This document shows positions 374 through 63,599 of a stretch of DNA of 64,000 nucleotides, piece by piece (within the stretch, counting starts at the first letter, position 1; each line of letters begins with the position of its first letter). Where the stretch lies: NCBI GenBank assembly GCA_017617935.1, contig JAFZVF010000051.1:1-64000 (forward strand). The letters run 5' to 3'. Source of the stretch: Clostridiales bacterium. Its GTDB lineage: Bacteria; Bacillota; Clostridia; Saccharofermentanales; Saccharofermentanaceae. The notes under the pieces are model-generated. The model had not been told where the DNA came from, did no database searches, and saw nothing but the letters and a program-made list of their open reading frames with translations. Both the position numbers and the translations under genes were made by a program.

Positions 374-405
374 CCCCGCGTATATATATGCGCGGGGTAT
401 TTTTA
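374..405 (+). terminator. Intrinsic terminator of the malic enzyme gene
   Basis: CCCCGCG (374-380) pairs with CGCGGGG (391-397), the stem may extend through the TA-rich loop, and TATTTTTA follows. It sits 25 bases after the malic enzyme stop codon. Confidence 0.75.
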
Positions 406-426
406 ATATTGAAAGGACGGTTCACA

Positions 427-915
427 ATGATTGACGACATCGAATTGCTGAGACTTATTGAAAACAACGCAAGGCTTTCTTCCGAAGAGATAGCCGTTAT
501 GCTCGGCACGACCGCCGCCGACGTTGAAGCCGAAATCAAGCGCCTCAAGGATGAGAACATCATCTTGGGATACAACACGATAATCAACTGGGAGAAGCAG
601 GCGCCCGACAACTGCATCGGCATGATCGAGGTAAGGATCACGCCCGTCAAGAACAAGGGTTATGACCACATCGCCCAGATCCTGAGCAAATATGACAAGG
701 TGACCGCATGCTACCTCATGTCCGGCGGTTTTGACCTCATGATCATATACGAGGACAGCAACTTAAGGAACATCGCCAACTTCGTTACCGAGAAGATCGC
801 CACTCTTGAGGGCGTTCTTTCCACGACGACGCACTTCATCCTCAAGAAATACAAGGCTAACGGCATTATCTACGATAATCCGAACACCGATGACAGGCAG
901 GCGATCATCTTATGA
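427..915 (+). CDS. Lrp/AsnC family transcriptional regulator
   Basis: 162-residue protein. An N-terminal winged helix-turn-helix (about residues 1-60, with LRLIENNARLSSEEIAVMLG and EIKRLKDENIILGY) is followed by a RAM/ligand domain with the beta-alpha-beta pattern of Lrp proteins (about 65-150). Such proteins form dimers or octamers and respond to amino acids. The start at 427 is preferred because GAAAGGACGG lies just upstream. An in-frame ATG at 388 falls in the terminator hairpin. The last four bases (ATGA) overlap the start of the aminotransferase, so the two are translationally coupled, and regulation of that gene is a reasonable inference. Confidence 0.88.
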   Translation: MIDDIELLRLIENNARLSSEEIAVMLGTTAADVEAEIKRLKDENIILGYNTIINWEKQAPDNCIGMIEVRITPVKNKGYDHIAQILSKYDKVTACYLMSGGFDLMIIYEDSNLRNIANFVTEKIATLEGVLSTTTHFILKKYKANGIIYDNPNTDDRQAIIL

Positions 916-2099
916 GTTTAGATTACGATTCAAAGATCTCCAAAGCTGTTCAGGCCGTGCCGCCTTCAGCCATAAGGAAGTTCTTCGATCTTGCGAACGA
1001 GATGCAGGGGCACGTCATCTCGCTGTCCATCGGAGAGCCTGACTTCGATACGCCCTGGTCCATCAGGGAGTCCGCGATCAATTCGCTTATCGAAGGCTAT
1101 ACGCACTATTCGCCCAATTCCGGTTACATTGATTCCAGGAAGGCGATCGCTGATTACGTCGTCAGAAGATACGGCGTTTCATACGATCCCAAGTCCGAGA
1201 TCCTCATTACCGTTGGCGGCAGTGAAGGTTTGGACCTGGCAGCAAGGGCGCTTATCAATCCCGGCGACGAGGTCATTGTCGTTGAGCCCTGTTTCGTGGC
1301 TTACAAGGCAACCGTCAATTTTGCTCACGGCGTGCCCGTGATCGTTTCAACAAAGCCTGAAAACGACTACAAGCTCATGCCTGAGGAATTGGAAACTGCG
1401 ATCACCGACAAGACGAAGTACATTATCGTCGGTTATCCCAACAATCCTACCGGCGCCATCATGACTCTCGAAGACTGGGCAAAGATCAAGGACGTTCTTT
1501 TGAAGCATCCCGACATCATAGTTCTTTCCGATGAACTCTATTGCGAGCTCAACTATTTGGACGGAAAGCCCGCTTCGCTTACGCAGTTTGCAGAGCTGAA
1601 GGACAGGGTGGTAATGGTAAACGGCTTCTCGAAGTCTTACGCCATGACGGGTTTCCGTGTAGGATACCTGGCAGGTCCCAAGGAACTCATCGCGCCGATG
1701 TTCAAGATCCATCAGTACTGCATCATGTGCGCTCCTTCAACGTCGCAGTATGCAGTCGTCGAAGCTGCCATGAACTCTGACGACGAAGTTACAAAGATGC
1801 GTGACGAATACAACCACAGAAGAAGGGTCATCATTCAGGGCCTTAAGGATGCCGGCCTTGACTGCTTTACTCCATACGGAGCTTTTTACGCTTTCCCTTC
1901 GATCAAGAGCACGGGTCTTACTTCCGAACAGTTCTGTGAGCGGTTCCTGCTTGAAAAGCACGTGGCAATGGTACCCGGAAACGCTTTCGGCGAGTGCGGT
2001 GAGGGATTTGTAAGGATCAGTTACGCGGCATCTTTGGAAGACATTAAGGAAGCCATGAAGCTTCTCAAGGAATTTGTAGAGGAACTTAAGAAAGGTTAA
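912..2099 (+). CDS. Class I/II PLP-dependent aminotransferase
   Basis: 395 residues, the usual length for fold-type I aminotransferases of the aspartate aminotransferase superfamily. Visible landmarks are SIGEPDFDTP near the N-terminus, GGSEGLDLAARAL (cofactor phosphate loop), YPNNPTG, SDELYCEL (Asp that contacts the pyridine nitrogen) and NGFSKSYAMTGFRVGY, in which Lys241 should form the Schiff base. The conserved C-terminal Arg lies in FVRISYA. It transfers an amino group between an amino acid and a 2-oxo acid in the cytosol. The exact substrate is not readable. Pairing with an Lrp-type regulator suggests amino acid-responsive expression. Confidence 0.88.
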   Translation: MSLDYDSKISKAVQAVPPSAIRKFFDLANEMQGHVISLSIGEPDFDTPWSIRESAINSLIEGYTHYSPNSGYIDSRKAIADYVVRRYGVSYDPKSEILITVGGSEGLDLAARALINPGDEVIVVEPCFVAYKATVNFAHGVPVIVSTKPENDYKLMPEELETAITDKTKYIIVGYPNNPTGAIMTLEDWAKIKDVLLKHPDIIVLSDELYCELNYLDGKPASLTQFAELKDRVVMVNGFSKSYAMTGFRVGYLAGPKELIAPMFKIHQYCIMCAPSTSQYAVVEAAMNSDDEVTKMRDEYNHRRRVIIQGLKDAGLDCFTPYGAFYAFPSIKSTGLTSEQFCERFLLEKHVAMVPGNAFGECGEGFVRISYAASLEDIKEAMKLLKEFVEELKKG

Positions 2100-2101
2100 T
2101 T

Positions 2102-3217
2102 ATGCTGGAATTCGACAACATAAGACTTGAACTTGAATCTTTTGAAGAACCGGTTGCAAAGCTCAAGGATGCGCTGCACATCGATCACGTAAGCGATCAG
2201 ATCAGCGAACTTGAACAGCGTACGACCGAGCCTGATTTTTGGAATAACTCTGATAAGGCTACCGAGCTTACACAGAGGCTTGGCCAGCTCAAGAAGAAAG
2301 TTGAAAGCTATAAGGCTTTGGCTTCTGAAAGGGAGGACCTTCTTGCGCTTTGCGAGCTTGGCAACGAGGAAGAGGATTTGGATACGCTCGCCGAGCTTAA
2401 GACGAGCGTCGCGGCCTTCAAGGATGCCTTCGAGAAGATGCGCCTTCAGACTCTGCTTACCGGTCCTTACGATGCCAATAACGCCACGCTTTCGCTTCAT
2501 GCGGGCGCAGGCGGAACGGAGGCCATGGACTGGTGCTCCATGCTCTACAGAATGTATACGAGATGGGCTGAAGCTCACGGATTCATTGTTGAGGAACTTG
2601 ATTACGTTGAGGGCGATTCGGCCGGCATCCAGTCCGTTTCCGCCATGATCAAGGGCGAGAACGCATACGGCTTCTTGAGGTCTGAATTAGGCGTTCACCG
2701 TCTCGTCAGGATCTCGCCGTTTGACGCCGCAGGCAGAAGACATACGTCCTTTGCTTCCTGCGAAGTCATCCCCGAGCTTGACCAGAAGACCGAGGATGAC
2801 ATCAAGATCGACATGTCCGAAGTCCGTGTAGATACGTACCGTTCAACGGGTAAGGGCGGTCAGCACATCAACAAGACCGATACTGCCGTCAGAATGACGC
2901 ACAATCCCACCGGAATCGTCGTTTCCTGCCAGGCTGAGAGATCACAGCTCCAGAACAGGGAGACGTGCCTTAAGATGCTGAAAGCAAAGCTTTTCGCGCT
3001 CGCAAGGGCTTCCGAGATGGAGAAGATCGAAGACCTCAAAGGCAACCAGATGGACATCGCTTGGGGTTCACAGATCAGGTCTTACGTTTTCTGCCCCTAC
3101 ACGCTCGTTAAGGACGCCCGTACTGGTTACGAGGAAGTCGACGTTGATTCCGTCATGGACGGCAATCTGGACGGCTTCATCAACGCATACCTATCCGGAA
3201 TGAAGAACGAGAAGTAA
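2102..3217 (+). CDS. prfB: Peptide chain release factor 2
   Basis: 371-residue class I release factor that reads UAA and UGA stop codons and triggers peptide release on the ribosome. The peptidyl-hydrolysis motif GGQ is at residues 252-254 (STGKGGQHINKTDTAVR). The RF2-specific anticodon-like tripeptide SPF is at 205-207 (RISPFDAAGRRHTSF), which separates it from RF1. The reading frame is continuous from the ATG two bases after the aminotransferase stop. The in-frame UGA plus +1 frameshift used by many bacteria to autoregulate prfB is absent here. It shares a transcript with the preceding aminotransferase. Confidence 0.96.
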   Translation: MLEFDNIRLELESFEEPVAKLKDALHIDHVSDQISELEQRTTEPDFWNNSDKATELTQRLGQLKKKVESYKALASEREDLLALCELGNEEEDLDTLAELKTSVAAFKDAFEKMRLQTLLTGPYDANNATLSLHAGAGGTEAMDWCSMLYRMYTRWAEAHGFIVEELDYVEGDSAGIQSVSAMIKGENAYGFLRSELGVHRLVRISPFDAAGRRHTSFASCEVIPELDQKTEDDIKIDMSEVRVDTYRSTGKGGQHINKTDTAVRMTHNPTGIVVSCQAERSQLQNRETCLKMLKAKLFALARASEMEKIEDLKGNQMDIAWGSQIRSYVFCPYTLVKDARTGYEEVDVDSVMDGNLDGFINAYLSGMKNEK

Positions 3218-3220
3218 TCC

Positions 3221-3652
3221 ATGTATTTTGACGACATGAAGATCGGCATGAAGGTTGATACCGCTCCTGCCGTTATCGAGAAAGAAAAGATGCTGGCTTT
3301 TGCCAGGCTTTACGACAACATTCCGCTTCACACGGATGAGGAATACGCTAAGACAACGCCATTCGGCAAGCTTATTGCCCCCGGCGTTATGTCGTTTTTG
3401 GAAGTGTGGAGCAAGTATCTTGAAGTGGATTTCTACGGTGAAGAGCTGCTTGCGGGAATCTCTACCAAGATCGAATGGCATAAGCCGGTTTTCCCGGATG
3501 ACGTTCTGACGGGAACCGCTGAGATCACGAACCTTGTCGAACGCAATCCAAAGAACGGCCTGGCTGAACTTACCATTAAGGTCTACAACCAGAACGGCGA
3601 ACTCGTGCTGACCGACGTTACTGAGTCAGTAGTCAAGCGCAGGCCTGCCTGA
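3221..3652 (+). CDS. MaoC-like (R)-specific enoyl-CoA hydratase family protein
   Basis: 143 residues forming a single hot-dog domain. The hydratase-2 motif is visible as ARLYDNIPLHTDEEYAKTTPFG followed by IAPG, where the Asp and His of D-x(4)-H are the expected catalytic pair. Members hydrate trans-2-enoyl thioesters or act in related acyl-CoA chemistry. The gene starts three bases after prfB. No other fatty acid genes are adjacent, so its pathway is unknown. Confidence in the fold is high, confidence in the substrate low. Confidence 0.85.
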   Translation: MYFDDMKIGMKVDTAPAVIEKEKMLAFARLYDNIPLHTDEEYAKTTPFGKLIAPGVMSFLEVWSKYLEVDFYGEELLAGISTKIEWHKPVFPDDVLTGTAEITNLVERNPKNGLAELTIKVYNQNGELVLTDVTESVVKRRPA

Positions 3653-3682
3653 TCCAATCTGACATATCTATTCCTAAATCTA

Positions 3683-3720
3683 ACGCTGCCAGACGGTTTT
3701 TCCTGATACGGCAGTGTATT
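3683..3720 (+). terminator. Possible terminator after the MaoC gene
   Basis: ACGCTGCC (3683-3690) can pair with GGCAGTGT (3710-3717, one G-U pair) across a 19-base loop, followed by ATTTTG. The large loop and short T-run make it weaker than the other terminators of the window. Confidence 0.4.
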
Positions 3721-3750
3721 TTGTCAAGAAAAGTTGTAAAATGTTTTATA
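3721..3750 (+). promoter_or_regulatory. Candidate promoter of the LRR gene array
   Basis: TTGTCA (3721-3726) and TTTATA (3745-3750) are separated by 18 bases. This is the only promoter-like pair seen upstream of the four-gene array. The spacers between the four genes are too short for further promoters, so the array is probably one transcript. Confidence 0.45.
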
Positions 3751-3789
3751 GTGGGTTATTTCGCGAATAAGGTTTATTGGGGGTAGAAA

Positions 3790-5526
3790 ATGAAAGCTTT
3801 AAAAGTAACATCAGTTCTTTTGTCAGCCGTTATGTGCGTTTCAATGGTGATGATGCCTGTTTCGGTGTTTGCTGACGAGACGGAAACTCCTTCTGAGACG
3901 GAGACAACAGAAACGGAAGAAGAAAAAGAATCAGAGAAGCCGGATCCTAAAGAAGAAAAGCAGGAACCTGAAGAGGATGAAGAACCTGCTGAAGAATCTG
4001 AACCCGAAGACGGAGAAGAACGGGTACCCGGTGATGAAGACAGCCAGGAGGCTATGGATGCTGTAGCTTCAGGAAAGTGCGGTAAAAAGCTTAAGTGGAC
4101 CTTGGACAAAAACGGTACTCTTAAGATTACCGGCAAGGGCTCTATGTACAGCTTTAAGCCCAAGGGACCAACGGATCCATTTAACAGGCCTTGGGAAAAT
4201 TATAAGGACGATATTAAGAAACTTGTTGTCTCTAAGGGCGTGACTACCATTGGCAAATACGCTTTTTATCGCTTCGGAAACTTGACAAGCGTTTCGCTTC
4301 CAAAAACTTTGAAGATAATTGATGATGTTGCATTTTCTCGGACGGGTCTTACCAGCGTTACCGTACCAAATGGCGTAAAGACTATTGGAGATAGTGCATT
4401 TTACGGCTGCAAGCTGCTTGCAAGCGCCAAGCTTCCTGACAGCGTTACGACTCTTAAAGCGTATGCATTTGGTCAATGTCTCGTCCTTAAAAGCGTAAAC
4501 ATTCCTAAGAATTTAAAAGTTATAGAAGATAGGACGTTTGAAACAACTTCCATCGAGAGTATAACCATACCAAATGGCGTAACTTCGATAGGCGATTATG
4601 CGTTTAGTTCTACTCGCCTTAAGACCGTAACCATTCCTGCCAGTGTAAAAACTATTGGTGATTCAGCATTTTATTATAATCGGATTGAGAAGGTTAACAT
4701 TCCAAAATCAGGTTTAACTTCGCTTGGTGACAGAGCTTTTGCAAGTTGTATTTTTGAGAGTTTTGAAGTTCCTTTAACCGTAACGAGTTTTGGAAATTCC
4801 GTATTTTCCAATTGTAGTTATCTTAAAGATATCTGGATCAGCCCGATACAAAAACAGAATTTACCTGAAAACACTTTTGACGGATGTAATAATGTTAAGT
4901 TTACTGAGCATAATTACGCCATTATCGGCGAGACTTTTGGCGCCGGCAATGTTATATACGCCGTTACGAATCCAGCTACCGGTGGAACGACAGGGACTGT
5001 TGAGGTCTTTGGTTTTGACACTTCTGAAGAAAAGATCGTTGTTCCTAATGTCGTTACATACAGCAAGGACAACGTAACTGCCAAGGTCACTTATAGAGTT
5101 ACCAAGATTACTAACCTACTCAAACAGTTCAACGATAGCATAGCGCTGAAAACCATTGTAATCGGCTCGAATGTGGCAGTGATAGCAGACAACGCATTTG
5201 CAAATTGTCAGAATCTTGTATCCGTCACAGGCGGTGCAGGACTCAAGACGATAGGCTCTAAGGCTTTTGCGAATTGTCCAAACCTCAAAGTCTTAACCAT
5301 TAACTCTAAAGTCCTTTCAAAGATCGGAGCTGAAGCGTTTAACGGCGATAAGCTTCTTACGACTTTGAACATTAAGAAGACCACTAAGCTTACAAAGGGT
5401 GGAGTCAAGAATTCGCTTAAGGGTTCTTCGGTCAAGACCGTCAAAGTCAAGAAAAAGAAGGTCAAGAAGTATAAGAAGTTCTTCAAAAAGAAGAACAGCG
5501 GCAGAAGCGTCAAAGTTAAGAAATAA
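3790..5526 (+). CDS. Secreted BspA-like leucine-rich-repeat protein, array copy 1
   Basis: 578 residues. A signal peptide (1-28, cleavage after SVFA) is followed by a very acidic Glu/Pro/Thr linker (about 29-90), then the clostridial LRR lead-in GKCGKKLKWTLDKNGTLKITGKGSMY (95-120, split here as GKCGKK at 95-100 and GKGSMY at 115-120). LRR_5-type repeats of the form IGDxAF..C..LKSVxIP run to about residue 355. A beta-rich insert (about 365-450) and a second LRR block come next. The C-terminal module of about 50 residues is dominated by Lys and Val (KTTKLTK, SSVKTVKVKKKK, YKKFFKKKNSG). No LPXTG or membrane anchor is present. The family is linked to adhesion in other bacteria. The ligand here is unknown. 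Confidence 0.9.
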   Translation: MKALKVTSVLLSAVMCVSMVMMPVSVFADETETPSETETTETEEEKESEKPDPKEEKQEPEEDEEPAEESEPEDGEERVPGDEDSQEAMDAVASGKCGKKLKWTLDKNGTLKITGKGSMYSFKPKGPTDPFNRPWENYKDDIKKLVVSKGVTTIGKYAFYRFGNLTSVSLPKTLKIIDDVAFSRTGLTSVTVPNGVKTIGDSAFYGCKLLASAKLPDSVTTLKAYAFGQCLVLKSVNIPKNLKVIEDRTFETTSIESITIPNGVTSIGDYAFSSTRLKTVTIPASVKTIGDSAFYYNRIEKVNIPKSGLTSLGDRAFASCIFESFEVPLTVTSFGNSVFSNCSYLKDIWISPIQKQNLPENTFDGCNNVKFTEHNYAIIGETFGAGNVIYAVTNPATGGTTGTVEVFGFDTSEEKIVVPNVVTYSKDNVTAKVTYRVTKITNLLKQFNDSIALKTIVIGSNVAVIADNAFANCQNLVSVTGGAGLKTIGSKAFANCPNLKVLTINSKVLSKIGAEAFNGDKLLTTLNIKKTTKLTKGGVKNSLKGSSVKTVKVKKKKVKKYKKFFKKKNSGRSVKVKK

Positions 5527-5544
5527 GCTTGAAAGGAGTAGGAA

Positions 5545-7209
5545 ATGAAGAGTTTAAAACTGACATCAGTTCTTTTGTCAGCCGTAATGTGCGTTTCAAT
5601 GATGACGGCACCTGTTTCAGTCATGGCTGACGATACGGAAGTTCCTTCTGAGACGGAGACCACTGAAACGGAAGAAGAATCCGAGAAACCTGCTCCGAAG
5701 GAGGAAAAAGAGCAGGAACCTGAAAAGGAAGAGGATCCTGCCGAAGAAGAGGAAGCGGAACCTGAAGATGGTGAAGCTCAGGTACCCGGTGATGAAGACA
5801 GCCAGGAGGCAATGGATGCCGTTGCTTCAGGTAAGTGCGGTAAAAAGGTTAAGTGGTCCTTGGACAAAAAAGGCACGCTTAAGATCACCGGCAAGGGATC
5901 CATGTATAGTTACAAGTTTGATCAATACACTGCTCAACCAAATACGCCTTGGTTTAAATATGCCTCTAAGATCAAGAAGGTCGTTGTTTCCAAAGGCGTA
6001 ACCACCATCGGTTCGGCTTCTTTTTGTCTGTGCCAGAATATAACAAGCGTTTCTCTTCCAAAAGGAATTAAAACAATCGGCAAAGACGCTTTTGGCGCCT
6101 GTGACTCTTTAAAAACGATATCTCTTCCCAAGAGCGTCAGAAGAATAGATGAACAAGCTTTCTGCGAGAGTGGCATTACGAGTATTACAATACCTAAAGG
6201 CGTTACTGAGATTGGAAAAGGTGCTTTTTCATATACAACTTACCTTAAAAGCGTTTCGATTCCCGGTACTGTGAAAATAATCGGAAGCAATGCTTTTAGA
6301 GATTGTGATGGCCTTACGACGGTAACCATTCCCTCCAGCGTAAAAGAGATTGGTGAATCTGCGTTCTATGGCTGCGACAATCTCGCTACGGTCAAGATTC
6401 CTGTTGCGGGTCTGAGTACGATCGGAGAGGATGCTTTTAGAAAATGTACCAGTCTTACCAAGATAGACGTTCCCTTGTCTGTGACTGATCTTGGCGATTA
6501 TGCCTTTGCAGGATGCACGTCTCTTGAAGAAGCGACGATCAGCCAAACGCTTAGTAATCATTTGGCCGCTCATGTTTTCGACGGCTGCACGAAGCTGTCA
6601 AAGCCCACTGTTTCCAAGTATCTTGGCATCTATGAATATTTCTTTGATGACGGAAACACCAATTGTTTCATCGTATTGTCTCCTAACATTAACGGAACCG
6701 GAATGGCCTTAATGATGATTACCGATTATGTTCCTGAACGCTTGGTGGTTCCGAACGTTGCGGATTTCAACGGCGTAAAATATAAGGTTATCGGTGTAGT
6801 GGCTTCTTCGCGCAGCTATCTTAAGTATATGAAACAGCTGGTCCTCGGTTCTAACGTTGTCAGCATTACTGATGAAAACTTCGCAGGTTGCCCGGAACTC
6901 GTGTCCGTTACCGGAGGCGCAGGTCTTGTAACGATTGGCTCAAAAGCATTTGCAAACTGCCCGAAACTTAAGACTTTCAACATCACTTCGAAAAAGCTCA
7001 ATAAGATAGGCGCCAATGCTTTCGACATAGACAAGGCTCTCACGACGTTGCAGTTTAAGAAGACCACGAAGCTTACCAAGTCGGGTGTCAAGAATTCGCT
7101 AAAGGGTTCGTCGGTAAAGACGGTCAAGGTTAAGAAATCCAAGGTAAAGAAGTATAAGAAGATCTTCAAAAAGAAGAACAGCGGAAAGAAAGTAAAAGTT
7201 AAGAAATAA
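5545..7209 (+). CDS. Secreted BspA-like leucine-rich-repeat protein, array copy 2
   Basis: 554 residues with the same order of parts as copy 1: signal peptide to about residue 28 (ending SVMA), acidic linker, GKCGKKVKWSLDKKGTLK lead-in, LRR_5 repeats, a divergent central beta segment, a second LRR block and the Lys-rich tail. The first 25 codons are nearly identical in DNA to copy 1, whereas the central segment (about residues 350-420, KYLGIYEYFFDDGN) has diverged most. Eighteen bases separate it from copy 1, including the ribosome binding site GAAAGGAG. Cell surface or extracellular location is inferred. Confidence 0.9.
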   Translation: MKSLKLTSVLLSAVMCVSMMTAPVSVMADDTEVPSETETTETEEESEKPAPKEEKEQEPEKEEDPAEEEEAEPEDGEAQVPGDEDSQEAMDAVASGKCGKKVKWSLDKKGTLKITGKGSMYSYKFDQYTAQPNTPWFKYASKIKKVVVSKGVTTIGSASFCLCQNITSVSLPKGIKTIGKDAFGACDSLKTISLPKSVRRIDEQAFCESGITSITIPKGVTEIGKGAFSYTTYLKSVSIPGTVKIIGSNAFRDCDGLTTVTIPSSVKEIGESAFYGCDNLATVKIPVAGLSTIGEDAFRKCTSLTKIDVPLSVTDLGDYAFAGCTSLEEATISQTLSNHLAAHVFDGCTKLSKPTVSKYLGIYEYFFDDGNTNCFIVLSPNINGTGMALMMITDYVPERLVVPNVADFNGVKYKVIGVVASSRSYLKYMKQLVLGSNVVSITDENFAGCPELVSVTGGAGLVTIGSKAFANCPKLKTFNITSKKLNKIGANAFDIDKALTTLQFKKTTKLTKSGVKNSLKGSSVKTVKVKKSKVKKYKKIFKKKNSGKKVKVKK

Positions 7210-7227
7210 ACTGAAAGGGGTAGAAAA

Positions 7228-8910
7228 ATGAAGAGGTTAAAAGTAACGTCAGCACTTTTGTCGGTTGTAATGTGCGTATCGATGGCGATCGCACCCGTTA
7301 CGGTCATGGCCGATGAAACGGAAGTTCCTTCCGAAACGGAGACGACTGAAACGGAAGAGGAGAAGGGATCAGAAAAGCCGGCTCCAAAGGAGGAAGAAAA
7401 GCAGGAGCCTGAAAAGGAAGAACCTGCAGAAGAGGAACCGGAATCTGAAGACGGCGAAGAGCAGGTTCCTGGCGATGAAGACAGTCAGGATGCCATGGAT
7501 GCCGTTTTGGCCAAAGGCAAGTGCGGTAAAAAGGTTAAGTGGTCCTTGGACAAGAAGGGAACGCTTAAGATCACCGGTAAAGGGTCCATGTATGGATACA
7601 GTTTTGATCCGTCTACGTATCAATACAACACGCCTTGGGTCAAATATACGTCGAACATCAAGAAAATAGTTGTTTCAAAAGGCGTAACCACCATAGGGGA
7701 TTATGCTTTTGCCGGTTGTCTCAATGTAACGAGCGTTTCACTCCCCAAGGGACTTAAGATTATTTGTTACGGGGCTTTTTGCGGATGTTCTTCTTTGAAG
7801 AAGATCACGATTCCCAAGAGTGTAAGAAGAATAGACAATTACGCTTTTTGTGAAAGCGGCATTGAGAGTTTTACGATCCCTAAAGGCGTTACTGAGATTA
7901 AAGAGGCTGCTTTTGCAGCCTGCTACAATCTGAAGAGCATCTCCATTCCAAGCACGGTTACAAAGATCGGAGTAGCAGCTTTTAACTACTGTCAAAAACT
8001 TACGTCCGTAACCATTCCTTCGAGCGTAAAAGAGATCGAGTATTATGCTTTTGCCGAATGTAAAAACCTTAAGACCGTCAAGATCCCTGTTTCAGGACTT
8101 AATTCCATTGGCGTACGTGCATTTGACAATTGTCAGGCGCTTGAATCTTTTAACGTCCCTTTGTCCGTCACGTTCATTGGAGGATATGCCTTTGGCGACT
8201 GTAAGAATCTTGCTAAAGTTTGGATTTCCACAACTCAAAAGAATAATGCCATAGACTCATTTGAAGGAAGTTCAAACGTGAAATTCGACGAGCATGCTTA
8301 TGCCATCATCGGCGAGCAGCTTAACGGGGGAAACATCACTTACATCGTAACCAATCCTGCTGCCGGCGGATCGGCGGGTACTGTTGCAGTATATGGTTTC
8401 AGCTCTACTGACGAGAAGATTGTCGTTCCGAACGTTTTCACTTTCAGCAAGGATGGCGGAAAGACCAAGGTCACTTATAAAGTCACGAAGATTACCAACA
8501 TTGCCAGCCAGTTCAACGATACGATTGCGCTTAAAGCCCTTGTCATTGGTTCGAATGTTGCAGTGATTACGGATGGCGCATTTGCCAATTGCCAGAAACT
8601 TGAATCCGTAACAGGCGGTGCGGGACTCAAGACCATCGGAGCGAAAACGTTTGCGAACTGCCCTAACCTGAAAGTCTTTACGATCAATTCAAAAGTGCTT
8701 TCAAAGATTGGTGCCGGTGCGTTTGGCGGTGACGTGCTTCTGACGACTTTGAACATTAAGAAGACCACAAAGCTTACCAAGGCGGGAGTCAAGAATTCTC
8801 TTGCGGGCTCATCGGTCAAGACCGTCAAGGTAAAGAAAAAGAAGGTCAAGAAGTACAAGAAGTTCTTCAAAAAGAAGAACAGCGGTAAGAGCGTAAAAGT
8901 AAAGAAGTAA
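7228..8910 (+). CDS. Secreted BspA-like leucine-rich-repeat protein, array copy 3
   Basis: 560 residues: signal peptide ending TVMA, acidic linker about 30-85, GKCGKKVKWSLDKKGTLK lead-in, LRR_5 repeats, central beta segment close to that of copy 1 (DEHAYAIIGEQL, TNPAAGGSAGTV), second LRR block and Lys-rich tail. The 3' 120 bases match copy 4 with about two differences, much closer than the middles of the genes. This suggests recent duplication or gene conversion between the copies. The spacer to copy 2 is again 18 bases with GAAAGGGG. Confidence 0.9.
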   Translation: MKRLKVTSALLSVVMCVSMAIAPVTVMADETEVPSETETTETEEEKGSEKPAPKEEEKQEPEKEEPAEEEPESEDGEEQVPGDEDSQDAMDAVLAKGKCGKKVKWSLDKKGTLKITGKGSMYGYSFDPSTYQYNTPWVKYTSNIKKIVVSKGVTTIGDYAFAGCLNVTSVSLPKGLKIICYGAFCGCSSLKKITIPKSVRRIDNYAFCESGIESFTIPKGVTEIKEAAFAACYNLKSISIPSTVTKIGVAAFNYCQKLTSVTIPSSVKEIEYYAFAECKNLKTVKIPVSGLNSIGVRAFDNCQALESFNVPLSVTFIGGYAFGDCKNLAKVWISTTQKNNAIDSFEGSSNVKFDEHAYAIIGEQLNGGNITYIVTNPAAGGSAGTVAVYGFSSTDEKIVVPNVFTFSKDGGKTKVTYKVTKITNIASQFNDTIALKALVIGSNVAVITDGAFANCQKLESVTGGAGLKTIGAKTFANCPNLKVFTINSKVLSKIGAGAFGGDVLLTTLNIKKTTKLTKAGVKNSLAGSSVKTVKVKKKKVKKYKKFFKKKNSGKSVKVKK

Positions 8911-8928
8911 ACTTGAAAGGGGTAGAAA

Positions 8929-10551
8929 ATGAAGAGTTTAAAAGTAGCTTCAGCATTTTTATCGGCCGTAATGTGCGTATCCATGCTCATGACGCCGGCT
9001 GTGGCTTTGGCAGACGAGACTTCCGTGCCTGAGGAAACTCAGACCGCTACTGAAGCGGAAACGCCGGATGCACAGGAAGAACCGGAAGATGAGGAAGAGG
9101 AAAATGAAGACCTGCTTCCCGGTGAAGAAGACAGAAAAGAGGCTCTGGAAGCAGTAGCTTCAGGCAAATGCGGTAAAAAGCTGAAGTGGTCTTTGGATAA
9201 AAAGGGAACGCTTAAGATCACCGGCAAAGGTGCCATGTATAATTTCGACTGTAAAGAAAGCACTCCGTATGTATATTATTCAACAGCACCTTGGATCAAA
9301 TACGCTTCCAAGATCAAGAAAGTAGTTGTTTCCAAAAAGGTAACTACTCTTGGTGCTTATTCTTTTTACAAGTGCTCGAATCTTTCCAGCGTTTCGCTGC
9401 CTAAAAAGATGAAAGCTATAAACGATGGTGCATTTGCTTTTTGTTCGAAGCTTACCAAGATCACTCTTCCGAAGAAGTTAACTGTTATAAATGAAGGCGT
9501 TTTTTATGATGCCGGACTTACAAGTGTTGTAATCCCAAAAGGTGTAAAGAGTATCCGTTTCTTTGCATTCGCAGGTTGTGATAAGCTGAAAAGTGTATCT
9601 ATTCCCGGTACTGTTAAATCAATTGGTGTCAGTGCTTTTGGCGCTTGTTCCAGTTTAACTACCATTACTATTCCTGCAAGTGTAAAAGAGATAGGAGATA
9701 CAGCTTTCTCTTATTGTACCAACCTTAAAACTGTTAAAATTCCTATTTCAGGATTAAATACACTTGGTTATTCAGTGTTTGAGAATTGTACTGCGTTAAG
9801 CACATTTGAAATGCCTTTATCTGTTACGTACGTTGGAGAATATATATTTAATAATTGTACTAGCCTTAGCAAAGTGGTGATTAGCGAAAGACAGAGAGAA
9901 GTTGGCGTATTCTTCGATAAGACATTTTCAGGTTGTAAGTGTAGTTTCGATACGACAAAATATCTGATCATTGGCGATTACATTCCTGTTGGCCCGGTAA
10001 CTTATAGGATCACGAATCCTGCCATAAACGGCACAGGTACTGTTGATGTATATGCTATTAGTGACAGCGCAGAAAGTGTAGTAATTCCTCCTGTTGTTGA
10101 AGCTGAAGGCGTAAAATATAAAGTAACAACCATTTCGGGTAGTCTCAGCCAGTATAACGTTGATTTGAAACTGAAATCACTGGTTATTGGTTCTAATGTA
10201 ACTTCCATTGGTGCTAATGCTTTCTCTAACTGCCAGTATCTTGAATCCGTAACAGGCGGCGCAGGACTCAAGACGATCGGAGCGAAAGCTTTTGAAAACT
10301 GCCCTAACCTTAAGGTCTTTACCATCAATTCAAAAGTCCTTTCAAAGATCGGTGCTTATGCCTTCAACGGAGACAAGGCCCTCACGACTCTTCAGTTAAA
10401 GAAGACCACAAAGCTTACCAAAGCGGGAGTCAAGAACTCTCTTGCGGGCTCATCGGTCAAGACCGTCAAGGTAAAGAAAAAGAAGGTCAAGAAGTACAAG
10501 AAGTTCTTCAAAAAGAATAACAGCGGAAAGAGCGTTAAAGTAAAAAAATAA
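8929..10551 (+). CDS. Secreted BspA-like leucine-rich-repeat protein, array copy 4
   Basis: 540 residues. The signal peptide ends VALA, and the acidic linker is the shortest of the four (about 29-70). GKCGKKLKWSLDKKGTLK leads into LRR_5 repeats, a divergent insert (TKYLIIGDYIPVGPVTY), a second LRR block and the Lys-rich tail. The middle third of the gene (about 9540-10250) is visibly richer in A and T than its flanks and than the housekeeping genes nearby. A strong bidirectional terminator follows. Extracellular location is inferred from the signal peptide. No covalent anchor signal is present. Confidence 0.9.
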   Translation: MKSLKVASAFLSAVMCVSMLMTPAVALADETSVPEETQTATEAETPDAQEEPEDEEEENEDLLPGEEDRKEALEAVASGKCGKKLKWSLDKKGTLKITGKGAMYNFDCKESTPYVYYSTAPWIKYASKIKKVVVSKKVTTLGAYSFYKCSNLSSVSLPKKMKAINDGAFAFCSKLTKITLPKKLTVINEGVFYDAGLTSVVIPKGVKSIRFFAFAGCDKLKSVSIPGTVKSIGVSAFGACSSLTTITIPASVKEIGDTAFSYCTNLKTVKIPISGLNTLGYSVFENCTALSTFEMPLSVTYVGEYIFNNCTSLSKVVISERQREVGVFFDKTFSGCKCSFDTTKYLIIGDYIPVGPVTYRITNPAINGTGTVDVYAISDSAESVVIPPVVEAEGVKYKVTTISGSLSQYNVDLKLKSLVIGSNVTSIGANAFSNCQYLESVTGGAGLKTIGAKAFENCPNLKVFTINSKVLSKIGAYAFNGDKALTTLQLKKTTKLTKAGVKNSLAGSSVKTVKVKKKKVKKYKKFFKKNNSGKSVKVKK

Positions 10552-62800: not shown

Positions 62801-62855
62801 CTTTTTAACAAATACTATAATGATTTGGTAAATACATTGAAACATGGAGGTAAAA

Positions 62856-63599
62856 ATGAAACTTAAGCGTGTATTTGTTACATTGGTAGCTGTCGCAATG
62901 ACCGTTAGCATTGTACCCGCGTTGGTTTTCGCTGACGAGGTTAAGAATGATACGGAAGACACTGCTATTGTAGAAGTTGCTGACGCCAAGGCTGAAAATC
63001 CCGCTAAGCTCGGTTCACCGGTTCCTACCAGCGGTACTTGCGGTAAGAATCTTAAGTGGAGCGTTGACGGAAGCGGTAAGCTTGTCATTTCCGGTAAGGG
63101 TGCTATGTACAGCTATGGTGCTGGTAAGGCTCCTTGGTATGGTCTTAAGGATAAGATCACGGCTCTCGCTTTTGACGGTTCACCTACGTCTGTTGGTAAT
63201 TATGCGTTCTATAACCTTGACATTACCACTGTTTACATTCGTGCAACCATCAAGACGCTTGGCACAGGCGCTTTCTACAACTGCACAAAGCTTACAACCG
63301 TTAAGGGCGGAAATGCTCTGACAAAGATCGGCACGTCTGCATTCAAGAACTGCACAAGCCTTTCTTCGTTCACGATCAATTCCAAGAAGCTTTCTAAGAT
63401 TTGTTCTTCTGCTTTCGCAGGCGACACAAGCCTTACTCAGATCAACATCGCGAAGACGACAAAGCTTTCCAAGAAGGGCGTTAAGAATTCCCTCAAGGGT
63501 TCTTCCGTCAAGACTGTAAACGTCAAGAATTCCAAGAAGGTCGTTTACAAGTACTACTTCGGAAAGAGCAATTCCGGTGCTTCCGTTAAGGTTAAATAA
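62856..63599 (+). CDS. Short secreted BspA-like leucine-rich-repeat protein (fifth copy)
   Basis: 247 residues: signal peptide to about residue 27 (ending LVFA), a moderately acidic linker, the lead-in GTCGKNLKWSVDGSGKLVISG, four or so LRR_5 repeats (VGNYAFYNLDITTVYI, LGTGAFYNCTKLTTV, IGTSAFKNCTSLSSF, ICSSAFAGDTSLTQI) and the C-terminal module KTTKLSKKGVKNSLKGSSVK ending GASVKVK. It is related to the four-gene array 52 kb upstream but half the length. The long Glu-rich linker, the central beta insert and the pure Lys run are missing. Strong promoter and ribosome binding site suggest high expression. Confidence 0.9.
   Translation: MKLKRVFVTLVAVAMTVSIVPALVFADEVKNDTEDTAIVEVADAKAENPAKLGSPVPTSGTCGKNLKWSVDGSGKLVISGKGAMYSYGAGKAPWYGLKDKITALAFDGSPTSVGNYAFYNLDITTVYIRATIKTLGTGAFYNCTKLTTVKGGNALTKIGTSAFKNCTSLSSFTINSKKLSKICSSAFAGDTSLTQINIAKTTKLSKKGVKNSLKGSSVKTVNVKNSKKVVYKYYFGKSNSGASVKVK

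What the first reader, a model, noticed from the sequence alone, without database searches (positions are those of the whole stretch)
5350..5526. Lys/Val-rich C-terminal module shared by all five LRR proteins, with no known anchor
All five proteins end with a module of about 45-50 residues: KTTKLTK, GVKNSL, GSSVKTVKV and a tail such as YKKFFKKKNSG then VKVKK. There is no LPXTG, membrane helix or choline/SLH repeat. Because it is the most conserved part, it may bind teichoic acid, DNA or membrane lipids, or act as a sorting signal. I recall similar tails in other clostridial LRR proteins, but no assigned role.
Basis: partly seen in the sequence, partly recalled or inferred. Interest (0 to 1): 0.6.

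Follow-up and report, generated by a model that had tools for sequence, protein, structure and literature searches.

The report
Lysine-rich LRR cap, probable surface anchor
The shared lysine-rich ending of these bacterial proteins is not a separate tail but the folded end-cap of a leucine-rich-repeat domain, and because related enzymes in sister species carry known cell-wall anchors at the same place, it probably holds the proteins on the cell surface by its strong positive charge.

Summary
Five LRR_5 (BspA-type) secreted proteins in the window, and about a dozen in the genome, end in the same 50-58-residue Lys-rich module; it lies at the extreme C-terminus of 96 collected proteins (50-2669 aa as read) from ten genomes of one, probably Saccharofermentans, rumen lineage. 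AlphaFold models (pLDDT about 98 over the tail) show that it is not a free anchor peptide: it is the last degenerate LRR turn plus a helix and strand capping the solenoid. But the cap is far more basic than anything else in these proteins (+19.7 per 48 aa; 13 acidic residues in 4320), and the real unit is a ~185-residue C-terminal LRR module appended to unrelated proteins (heparinase-like lyase, CHAP+lectin, InlB-B-repeat adhesins). In sister species the homologous lyase carries SLH triplets, DUF4214 or an unnamed module in that slot, a homologous CHAP protein carries choline-binding repeats, and LRR_5 proteins carry LPXTG-like signals. Best reading: a non-covalent surface-retention module of LRR fold whose basic cap binds an anionic wall polymer. 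Fold, position, charge and slot substitution are shown; binding is inferred.

The parts
3790..5526 (+). LRR_5 protein A (578 aa): signal peptide, acidic linker (-27), LRR_5 repeats, C-terminal module with basic cap
5545..7209 (+). LRR_5 protein B (554 aa), tandem copy
7228..8910 (+). LRR_5 protein C (560 aa), tandem copy
8929..10551 (+). LRR_5 protein D (540 aa), last tandem copy
62844..63599 (+). LRR_5 protein E (251 aa), short orthologous family with a less basic cap; found in most tail-bearing genomes
5350..5523 (+). the reported tail in A: last LRR strand and final degenerate LRR turn plus helix-strand C-cap
   Evidence: structure modelled on the D copy
7033..7206 (+). the same tail in B
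8740..8907 (+). the same tail in C
10375..10548 (+). the same tail in D; part of the AlphaFold model, pLDDT 98-99
63429..63596 (+). the same tail in E; AlphaFold model, pLDDT 96-98
4909..5523 (+). ~185-205-residue C-terminal module of A (beta segment, 3-4 LRRs, cap), the real conserved unit
6592..7206 (+). C-terminal module of B
8293..8907 (+). C-terminal module of C
9934..10548 (+). C-terminal module of D (modelled)

Best explanation
The tail is the C-terminal cap of an LRR_5 solenoid: the last strand, one degenerate LRR turn, an amphipathic helix (V..Y..FF inward, Lys outward) and a final strand. With the 3-4 repeats before it, it forms a ~185-residue module appended at the C-terminus of many secreted proteins of this rumen lineage. 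Its most likely job is non-covalent retention on the cell's own envelope, with the strongly basic, solvent-exposed cap face docking on an anionic wall polymer (teichoic-acid-like or another secondary polymer). Shown by sequence or model: fold, strict C-terminal position, charge, attachment to unrelated domains, slot shared with known anchors in sister species. Inferred: that it binds the wall, the polymer bound, and that the lysines do it.
For: Fold: AlphaFold pLDDT 98-99 over the tail, strands at 105, 128, 152, 177 (23-25 spacing), helix 182-191, strand 202-204; the same in protein E; structural alignments to BspA-type crystal structures run to the last residue. Position: exact C-terminus of 96 proteins. 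Charge: +19.7 +/- 2.5 per 48 aa in 90 proteins; it is the most basic window of every protein and no other window reaches +15 (50,678 windows); 13 acidic of 4320 residues. Modularity: LRR_5 hit confined to the C-terminal ~150 aa in a heparinase-II/III-like protein, in CHAP+ricin-lectin+InlB-B-repeat, and in other InlB-B-repeat proteins. Slot substitution: lyase homologues (58-68% identical over about 630-700 aa, one clear copy per genome) end in the module in 5 tail-bearing genomes, in an SLH triplet in congeners (2 confirmed by Pfam, E about 1e-25; a third by eye), in DUF4214 or in a further shared module in others; a CHAP-lectin protein 48% identical over 200 aa ends in choline-binding repeats; LRR_5 proteins of tail-lacking congeners end in xPxTG+TM+KRK or choline-binding repeats. 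Tail-bearing genomes have no SLH hit (0/10) and almost no LPXTG hits (2 weak in 10 genomes).
Against: No binding was measured. Two of the substitutes (DUF4214, an unnamed module) are not proven anchors, so the slot may be more general than anchoring. Tail-bearing genomes are essentially one clade, so their scarcity of LPXTG and SLH is a single evolutionary contrast; 8 of 10 still have a sortase. Basic caps may partly reflect a general Lys bias of clostridial secreted proteins: an ordinary LRR cap (L161) also has +17. Presence of teichoic acid or another anionic wall polymer in this lineage was not examined. Other anchors (choline-binding repeats, CWB2, LysM) were not searched genome-wide.
Confidence: 0.6

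Rival explanations
1. Plain structural C-cap: the tail only closes the hydrophobic core of the LRR solenoid, and its lysines keep a highly conserved cap soluble. No anchoring role.
For: The model packs it as a cap in two different copies; all near-invariant uncharged positions are structural (L161, V166, S169, L170, S173, V178, V180, Y188, F192, N196, G198, V201, V203); less related clostridial LRR proteins end in similar caps, some Lys-rich.
Against: A cap need not be +20 with almost no acidic residue, nor be the most conserved part of proteins that share little else; the LRR+cap module closes enzymes whose homologues have real anchors instead.
Confidence: 0.2
2. Docking or assembly module: the basic cap binds an acidic protein partner (a scaffold, or the acidic N-terminal linkers of the same proteins), giving a protein layer rather than direct wall binding.
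For: Many of the proteins carry an acidic N-terminal linker (about -20 to -27 in the four tandem copies).
Against: Linker acidity and cap charge are uncorrelated (Spearman -0.07, p 0.55, 85 proteins), and caps of +19 to +22 occur in proteins with no acidic linker. No scaffold candidate was looked for.
Confidence: 0.12
3. Sorting signal read by a dedicated export or attachment machine (by analogy with type IX CTDs or sortase signals), possibly with processing.
For: Strict C-terminal position and one module on many unrelated passengers.
Against: No motif plus hydrophobic segment; folded to the last residue; no convincing NCBIfam model across 24 tails. Machinery was not searched for.
Confidence: 0.06
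4. The basic cap binds something outside the cell (plant polysaccharide such as pectin, mucin, extracellular DNA), making the proteins adhesins through the tail itself.
For: Rumen setting of the nearest named records and polysaccharide-type passengers (heparinase-like, lectin).
Against: Exchange of the module for SLH and choline-binding repeats, which bind the cell's own wall.
Confidence: 0.1

Closest known systems
BspA-type LRR_5 domain (PF13306), e.g. PcpA LRR 4cp6, TpLRR 6mlx, 4fs7, 4gt6, 4h09
   Same: Sequence family (all 68 scanned members hit) and fold; VIA-align Z 14.6-17.8 for these five, aligned to model residue 205
   Different: Sequence similarity to PDB entries stops near the start of the tail (about residue 155-168); the Lys-rich cap itself has no solved sequence relative
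PcpA of pneumococcus (LRR_5 followed by choline-binding repeats)
   Same: LRR_5 surface protein; the annotation of 4cp6 names it a choline-binding protein
   Different: There the anchor is a separate repeat domain (own knowledge); here nothing follows the LRR cap
SLH triplet (PF00395) and choline-binding repeats (PF01473 / PF19127)
   Same: Occupy the same C-terminal slot on homologous lyase and CHAP proteins in congeners
   Different: Unrelated sequence and fold; no hit to either in the proteins with the tail
GW modules of Listeria InlB / Ami / LygA
   Same: C-terminal domain holding LRR proteins or autolysins non-covalently on wall teichoic acid (PMC10335673): the functional analogy proposed
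   Different: SH3-like fold and Gal- or Rha-dependent recognition; no GW match here
Lys-rich LRR C-caps of Lachnospiraceae, Mogibacterium and Eggerthellales
   Same: Same ending (YKKIFTKKNCGKKVKVK) at the protein's C-terminus
   Different: Several have a 6-7-residue insertion before the helix; rare (none in 397 other genomes sampled from the phylum at E 1e-6)

Membership tests
LRR_5 / BspA-type LRR (PF13306) | profile match above the curated cut-off in each window protein | tested here: met
   82.6-252 bits against cut-off 27.7; 68 of 68 family members scanned match at E<=0.001
LRR_5 / BspA-type LRR (PF13306) | LRR solenoid with regular strand spacing continuing into the tail | tested here: met
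   strands at 105, 128, 152, 177 in D module; 122, 145, 169, 194 in E
LRR_5 / BspA-type LRR (PF13306) | tail recognised on its own as LRR_5 | tested here: not met
   isolated 58 aa gives 0 Pfam families; it is covered only as the end of a longer hit, e.g. 115-242 of 251, 834-962 of 971. So the proteins are members; the tail alone is not a profile match
Sortase (LPXTG) substrate | LPXTG-like motif, hydrophobic segment, basic end | tested here: not met
   absent from the tails listed; the tail is folded and highly charged
SLH-anchored protein | PF00395 repeats | tested here: not met
   no SLH among families of 68 members; 0 of 10 tail-bearing genomes have a hit at E<=1e-5
Choline-binding protein | PF01473 / PF19127 repeats | tested here: not met
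   no hit in window proteins or among the families of 68 relatives
GW / LysM / CWB2 wall-binding protein | corresponding Pfam domain | tested here: not met
   none among Pfam hits of window proteins or of 68 relatives
Non-covalent cell-wall anchor (by function) | binds isolated cell wall or wall polymer | not testable with these tools
   needs a binding assay; slot substitution is indirect
Type IX secretion CTD | CTD family match and T9SS genes | tested here: inconclusive
   no convincing NCBIfam model for the tail; genes of the machinery not searched

The most novel reading that the evidence does not exclude
A previously unnamed class of cell-wall retention module: an LRR_5 solenoid with a +20 basic C-cap, swapped for SLH, choline-binding or sortase anchors on homologous proteins within one genus, used for about a dozen surface proteins per genome.
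Probability: 0.5. Interest if true: 0.65.

Novelty: new variant of a known kind. Interest (0 to 1): 0.5.

Why it matters
Many gut and rumen Clostridia carry large sets of LRR_5 proteins with no recognisable anchor, and it is unclear how they stay on the cell. If the basic LRR cap is the anchor, a whole class of 'secreted' proteins is reassigned to the surface, LRR_5 domains gain an envelope-binding role besides ligand binding, and one conserved sequence pattern would predict it.

Tried and rejected
Separate tail domain: rejected by two AlphaFold models. Head-to-tail binding of basic cap to acidic linker: no correlation, and strong caps without linkers. Gene conversion as sole cause of conservation: codon identity at identical residues is higher in the tail (0.72 against 0.49; Lys codons 0.89 against 0.71), so some DNA-level homogenisation or codon bias is possible within the array, but the protein pattern also holds in far diverged genomes. 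Loss of sortases as proof: counts are lower in tail-bearing genomes (mean 1.4 against 2.8, Mann-Whitney p 0.007, counts typed), but these are nine nearest relatives by prfB plus one odd genome, so this is one clade, not independent evidence. A module in G000 without the tail (C34) proved to be cut by the contig end. Isolated tail against Pfam and NCBIfam: nothing useful. No paper found that assigns a role to such caps (open-access library only).

Full report
OBSERVATION. The stretch 5350-5526 is the 3' end of a 578-aa gene (3790-5526), first of four tandem LRR genes (3790-5526, 5545-7209, 7228-8910, 8929-10551). The four and a fifth, 62844-63599 (251 aa), end in the same Lys-rich sequence. A search of the window's own genome finds 11 good copies on six contigs; one contig (C34) stops inside the module and another (C52) starts with the tail, perhaps one gene split by assembly. 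In the family, ten of 115 genomes carry it, 5-14 copies each. I collected 96 proteins; the tail lies at the very C-terminus of each.

HOW FAR THE CONSERVED UNIT GOES. An 80-row alignment of the last 205 residues (A1) shows that conservation starts well before the reported tail: YxVTNxAxxGTGTV ... VVIPxxV ... YKVTxI..AF, then 3-4 LRR_5 repeats, then the tail. Column entropy falls steadily towards the C-terminus, 2.59, 1.99, 1.42 and 0.76 bits. A 261-aa reading frame (L013) is little more than signal peptide plus this unit.

WHAT THE TAIL IS. AlphaFold2 on the D-copy module with A1 gives mean pLDDT 95.7, 98-99 across the tail. Strands at 105-108, 128-131, 152-155 and 177-180 keep the LRR spacing; TKLTKAGVKNSLAGSSVKTVKV is thus one more, degenerate, LRR turn. 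Helix 182-191 (within KKVKKYKKFF), a short helix 194-197 and strand 202-204 close the solenoid. The fifth protein, whose helix is poorer in Lys (NSKKVVYKYYFGKSNSG), gives the same elements. Against the PDB the best matches are BspA-type LRR proteins (4cp6 Z 17.8, rmsd 3.0, 183 aligned; 6mlx Z 17.7; 4fs7, 4gt6, 4h09), aligned up to the model's last residue; for the fifth protein 4h09 gives Z 21.6. By sequence, matches to solved chains fade at about residue 155-168, so the tail is a cap of known fold but of its own sequence type. Pfam LRR_5 covers most of the tail when the upstream repeats are present, though the isolated 58 residues hit nothing in Pfam or NCBIfam.

WHY A PLAIN CAP IS NOT THE WHOLE STORY. 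First, charge: the last 48 residues carry +19.7 +/- 2.5 in 90 proteins (minimum +10); in 50,678 other 48-residue windows of the same proteins the mean is -0.6 and none reaches +15; the tail is the most basic window of every protein, with 13 acidic residues in 4320. About a dozen columns are Lys or Arg in at least 93% of 80 sequences, interleaved with the invariant structural residues; the helix is amphipathic (moment 0.67 against 0.32 for shuffles, p 0.02). Second, passengers: all 68 scanned proteins have LRR_5, but what precedes the module differs: 21 InlB-type B repeats, heparinase-II/III-like domain with LRR_5 only at 834-962 of 971, CHAP plus ricin-type lectin plus B repeats with LRR_5 only at 545-672 of 682. 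Third, exchange. I searched the lyase part (780 aa) in the family: 25 genomes have a strong match. In five tail-bearing genomes it ends in the LRR+cap module; in congeners and family members lacking the tail, proteins 58-68% identical over about 630-700 residues end in an SLH triplet (G041 and G036 by Pfam, E about 1e-25; G056 by eye, reading frame cut by the contig), in DUF4214 repeats, or in an unnamed module ('ESETxLxLYF ... YHKAAE') that also closes some LRR_5 proteins there. A CHAP-lectin protein in G054, 48% identical over 200 residues, ends in choline-binding repeats. LRR_5 proteins of tail-lacking congeners end in xPxTG plus a hydrophobic segment and KRK (L208, L219, L228, L230) or choline-binding repeats (L206). 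Tail-bearing genomes show no SLH hits and two weak LPXTG hits in ten genomes, though eight of ten keep a sortase.

CAUTIONS. By identity of prfB, nine of the ten tail-bearing genomes are the nine closest to the window's genome, itself included (92-100%), then a gap to 89%; the tenth, G026, has an 88% prfB and may be a mixed assembly. Genome-wide contrasts are therefore one clade against others. The lyase and CHAP exchanges are stronger because homologous proteins are compared, but two of the substituting modules have no proven anchoring role. Ordinary LRR caps of other Clostridia can be basic too (L161, +17). Similar tails with an insertion before the helix occur in scattered Lachnospiraceae, Mogibacterium and Eggerthellales records, but in none of 397 other genomes sampled from the phylum at E 1e-6.

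MECHANISM. Most likely (0.6): after Sec export the LRR module folds and its basic cap face holds the protein on an anionic wall polymer, reversibly and without sortase, as GW modules hold InlB and autolysins on teichoic acid (PMC10335673). Fold, position, charge and slot exchange are computed results; polymer, affinity and the role of the lysines are inference. Rivals: plain cap (0.2), docking to an acidic partner protein (0.12), outside ligand (0.1), dedicated sorting machine (0.06). The idea that the acidic linker is the partner is disfavoured: no correlation between linker and cap charge, and strong caps without linkers.

GENOMIC SETTING. The array sits at a conserved place, Lrp-type regulator - aminotransferase - prfB - LRR genes, with varying copy number (four here; five in G023; three in G025; at least two in G091). 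Gaps between copies are about 20 bases with a Shine-Dalgarno-like GAAAGG, and an inverted repeat with a T-rich end follows the last copy: an operon grown by tandem duplication.

VERDICT. Observation confirmed; 'separate anchor tail' not supported; 'C-terminal surface-retention module of LRR fold with a basic cap' supported indirectly and worth a binding experiment.

Noticed in passing
window 3790-10551: The four-gene LRR array has about 43.5% GC in a window otherwise near 50%, consistent with its A-rich Lys and Glu codons or with a different history.
   Followed up: no
window 388-10551; G023:C19, G025:C31, G091:C9 (L324, L325, L326): LRR arrays of different copy number lie downstream of the same Lrp-type regulator - aminotransferase - prfB genes in several species: a conserved site of tandem expansion.
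   Followed up: partly
Possibly another surface module.
   Followed up: partly
L271, L272, L273, L277, L279, L290: A homologous heparinase-like protein changes its C-terminal domain between species (LRR cap, SLH, DUF4214, unnamed), a natural set for studying exchange of anchors.
   Followed up: partly
G026 (L055-L058): This genome holds LRR genes almost identical to those of G023 but a prfB outside the tail-bearing group (88%) and five sortase hits; it may be a mixed assembly.
   Followed up: no
G000:C34 end and G000:C52 start: A truncated module at one contig end and a lone tail at another contig start are probably one gene split in assembly.
   Followed up: partly
L150, L166: The same ending in records labelled Eggerthellales / Eggerthellaceae suggests horizontal spread or mis-binned MAG contigs.
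   Followed up: no
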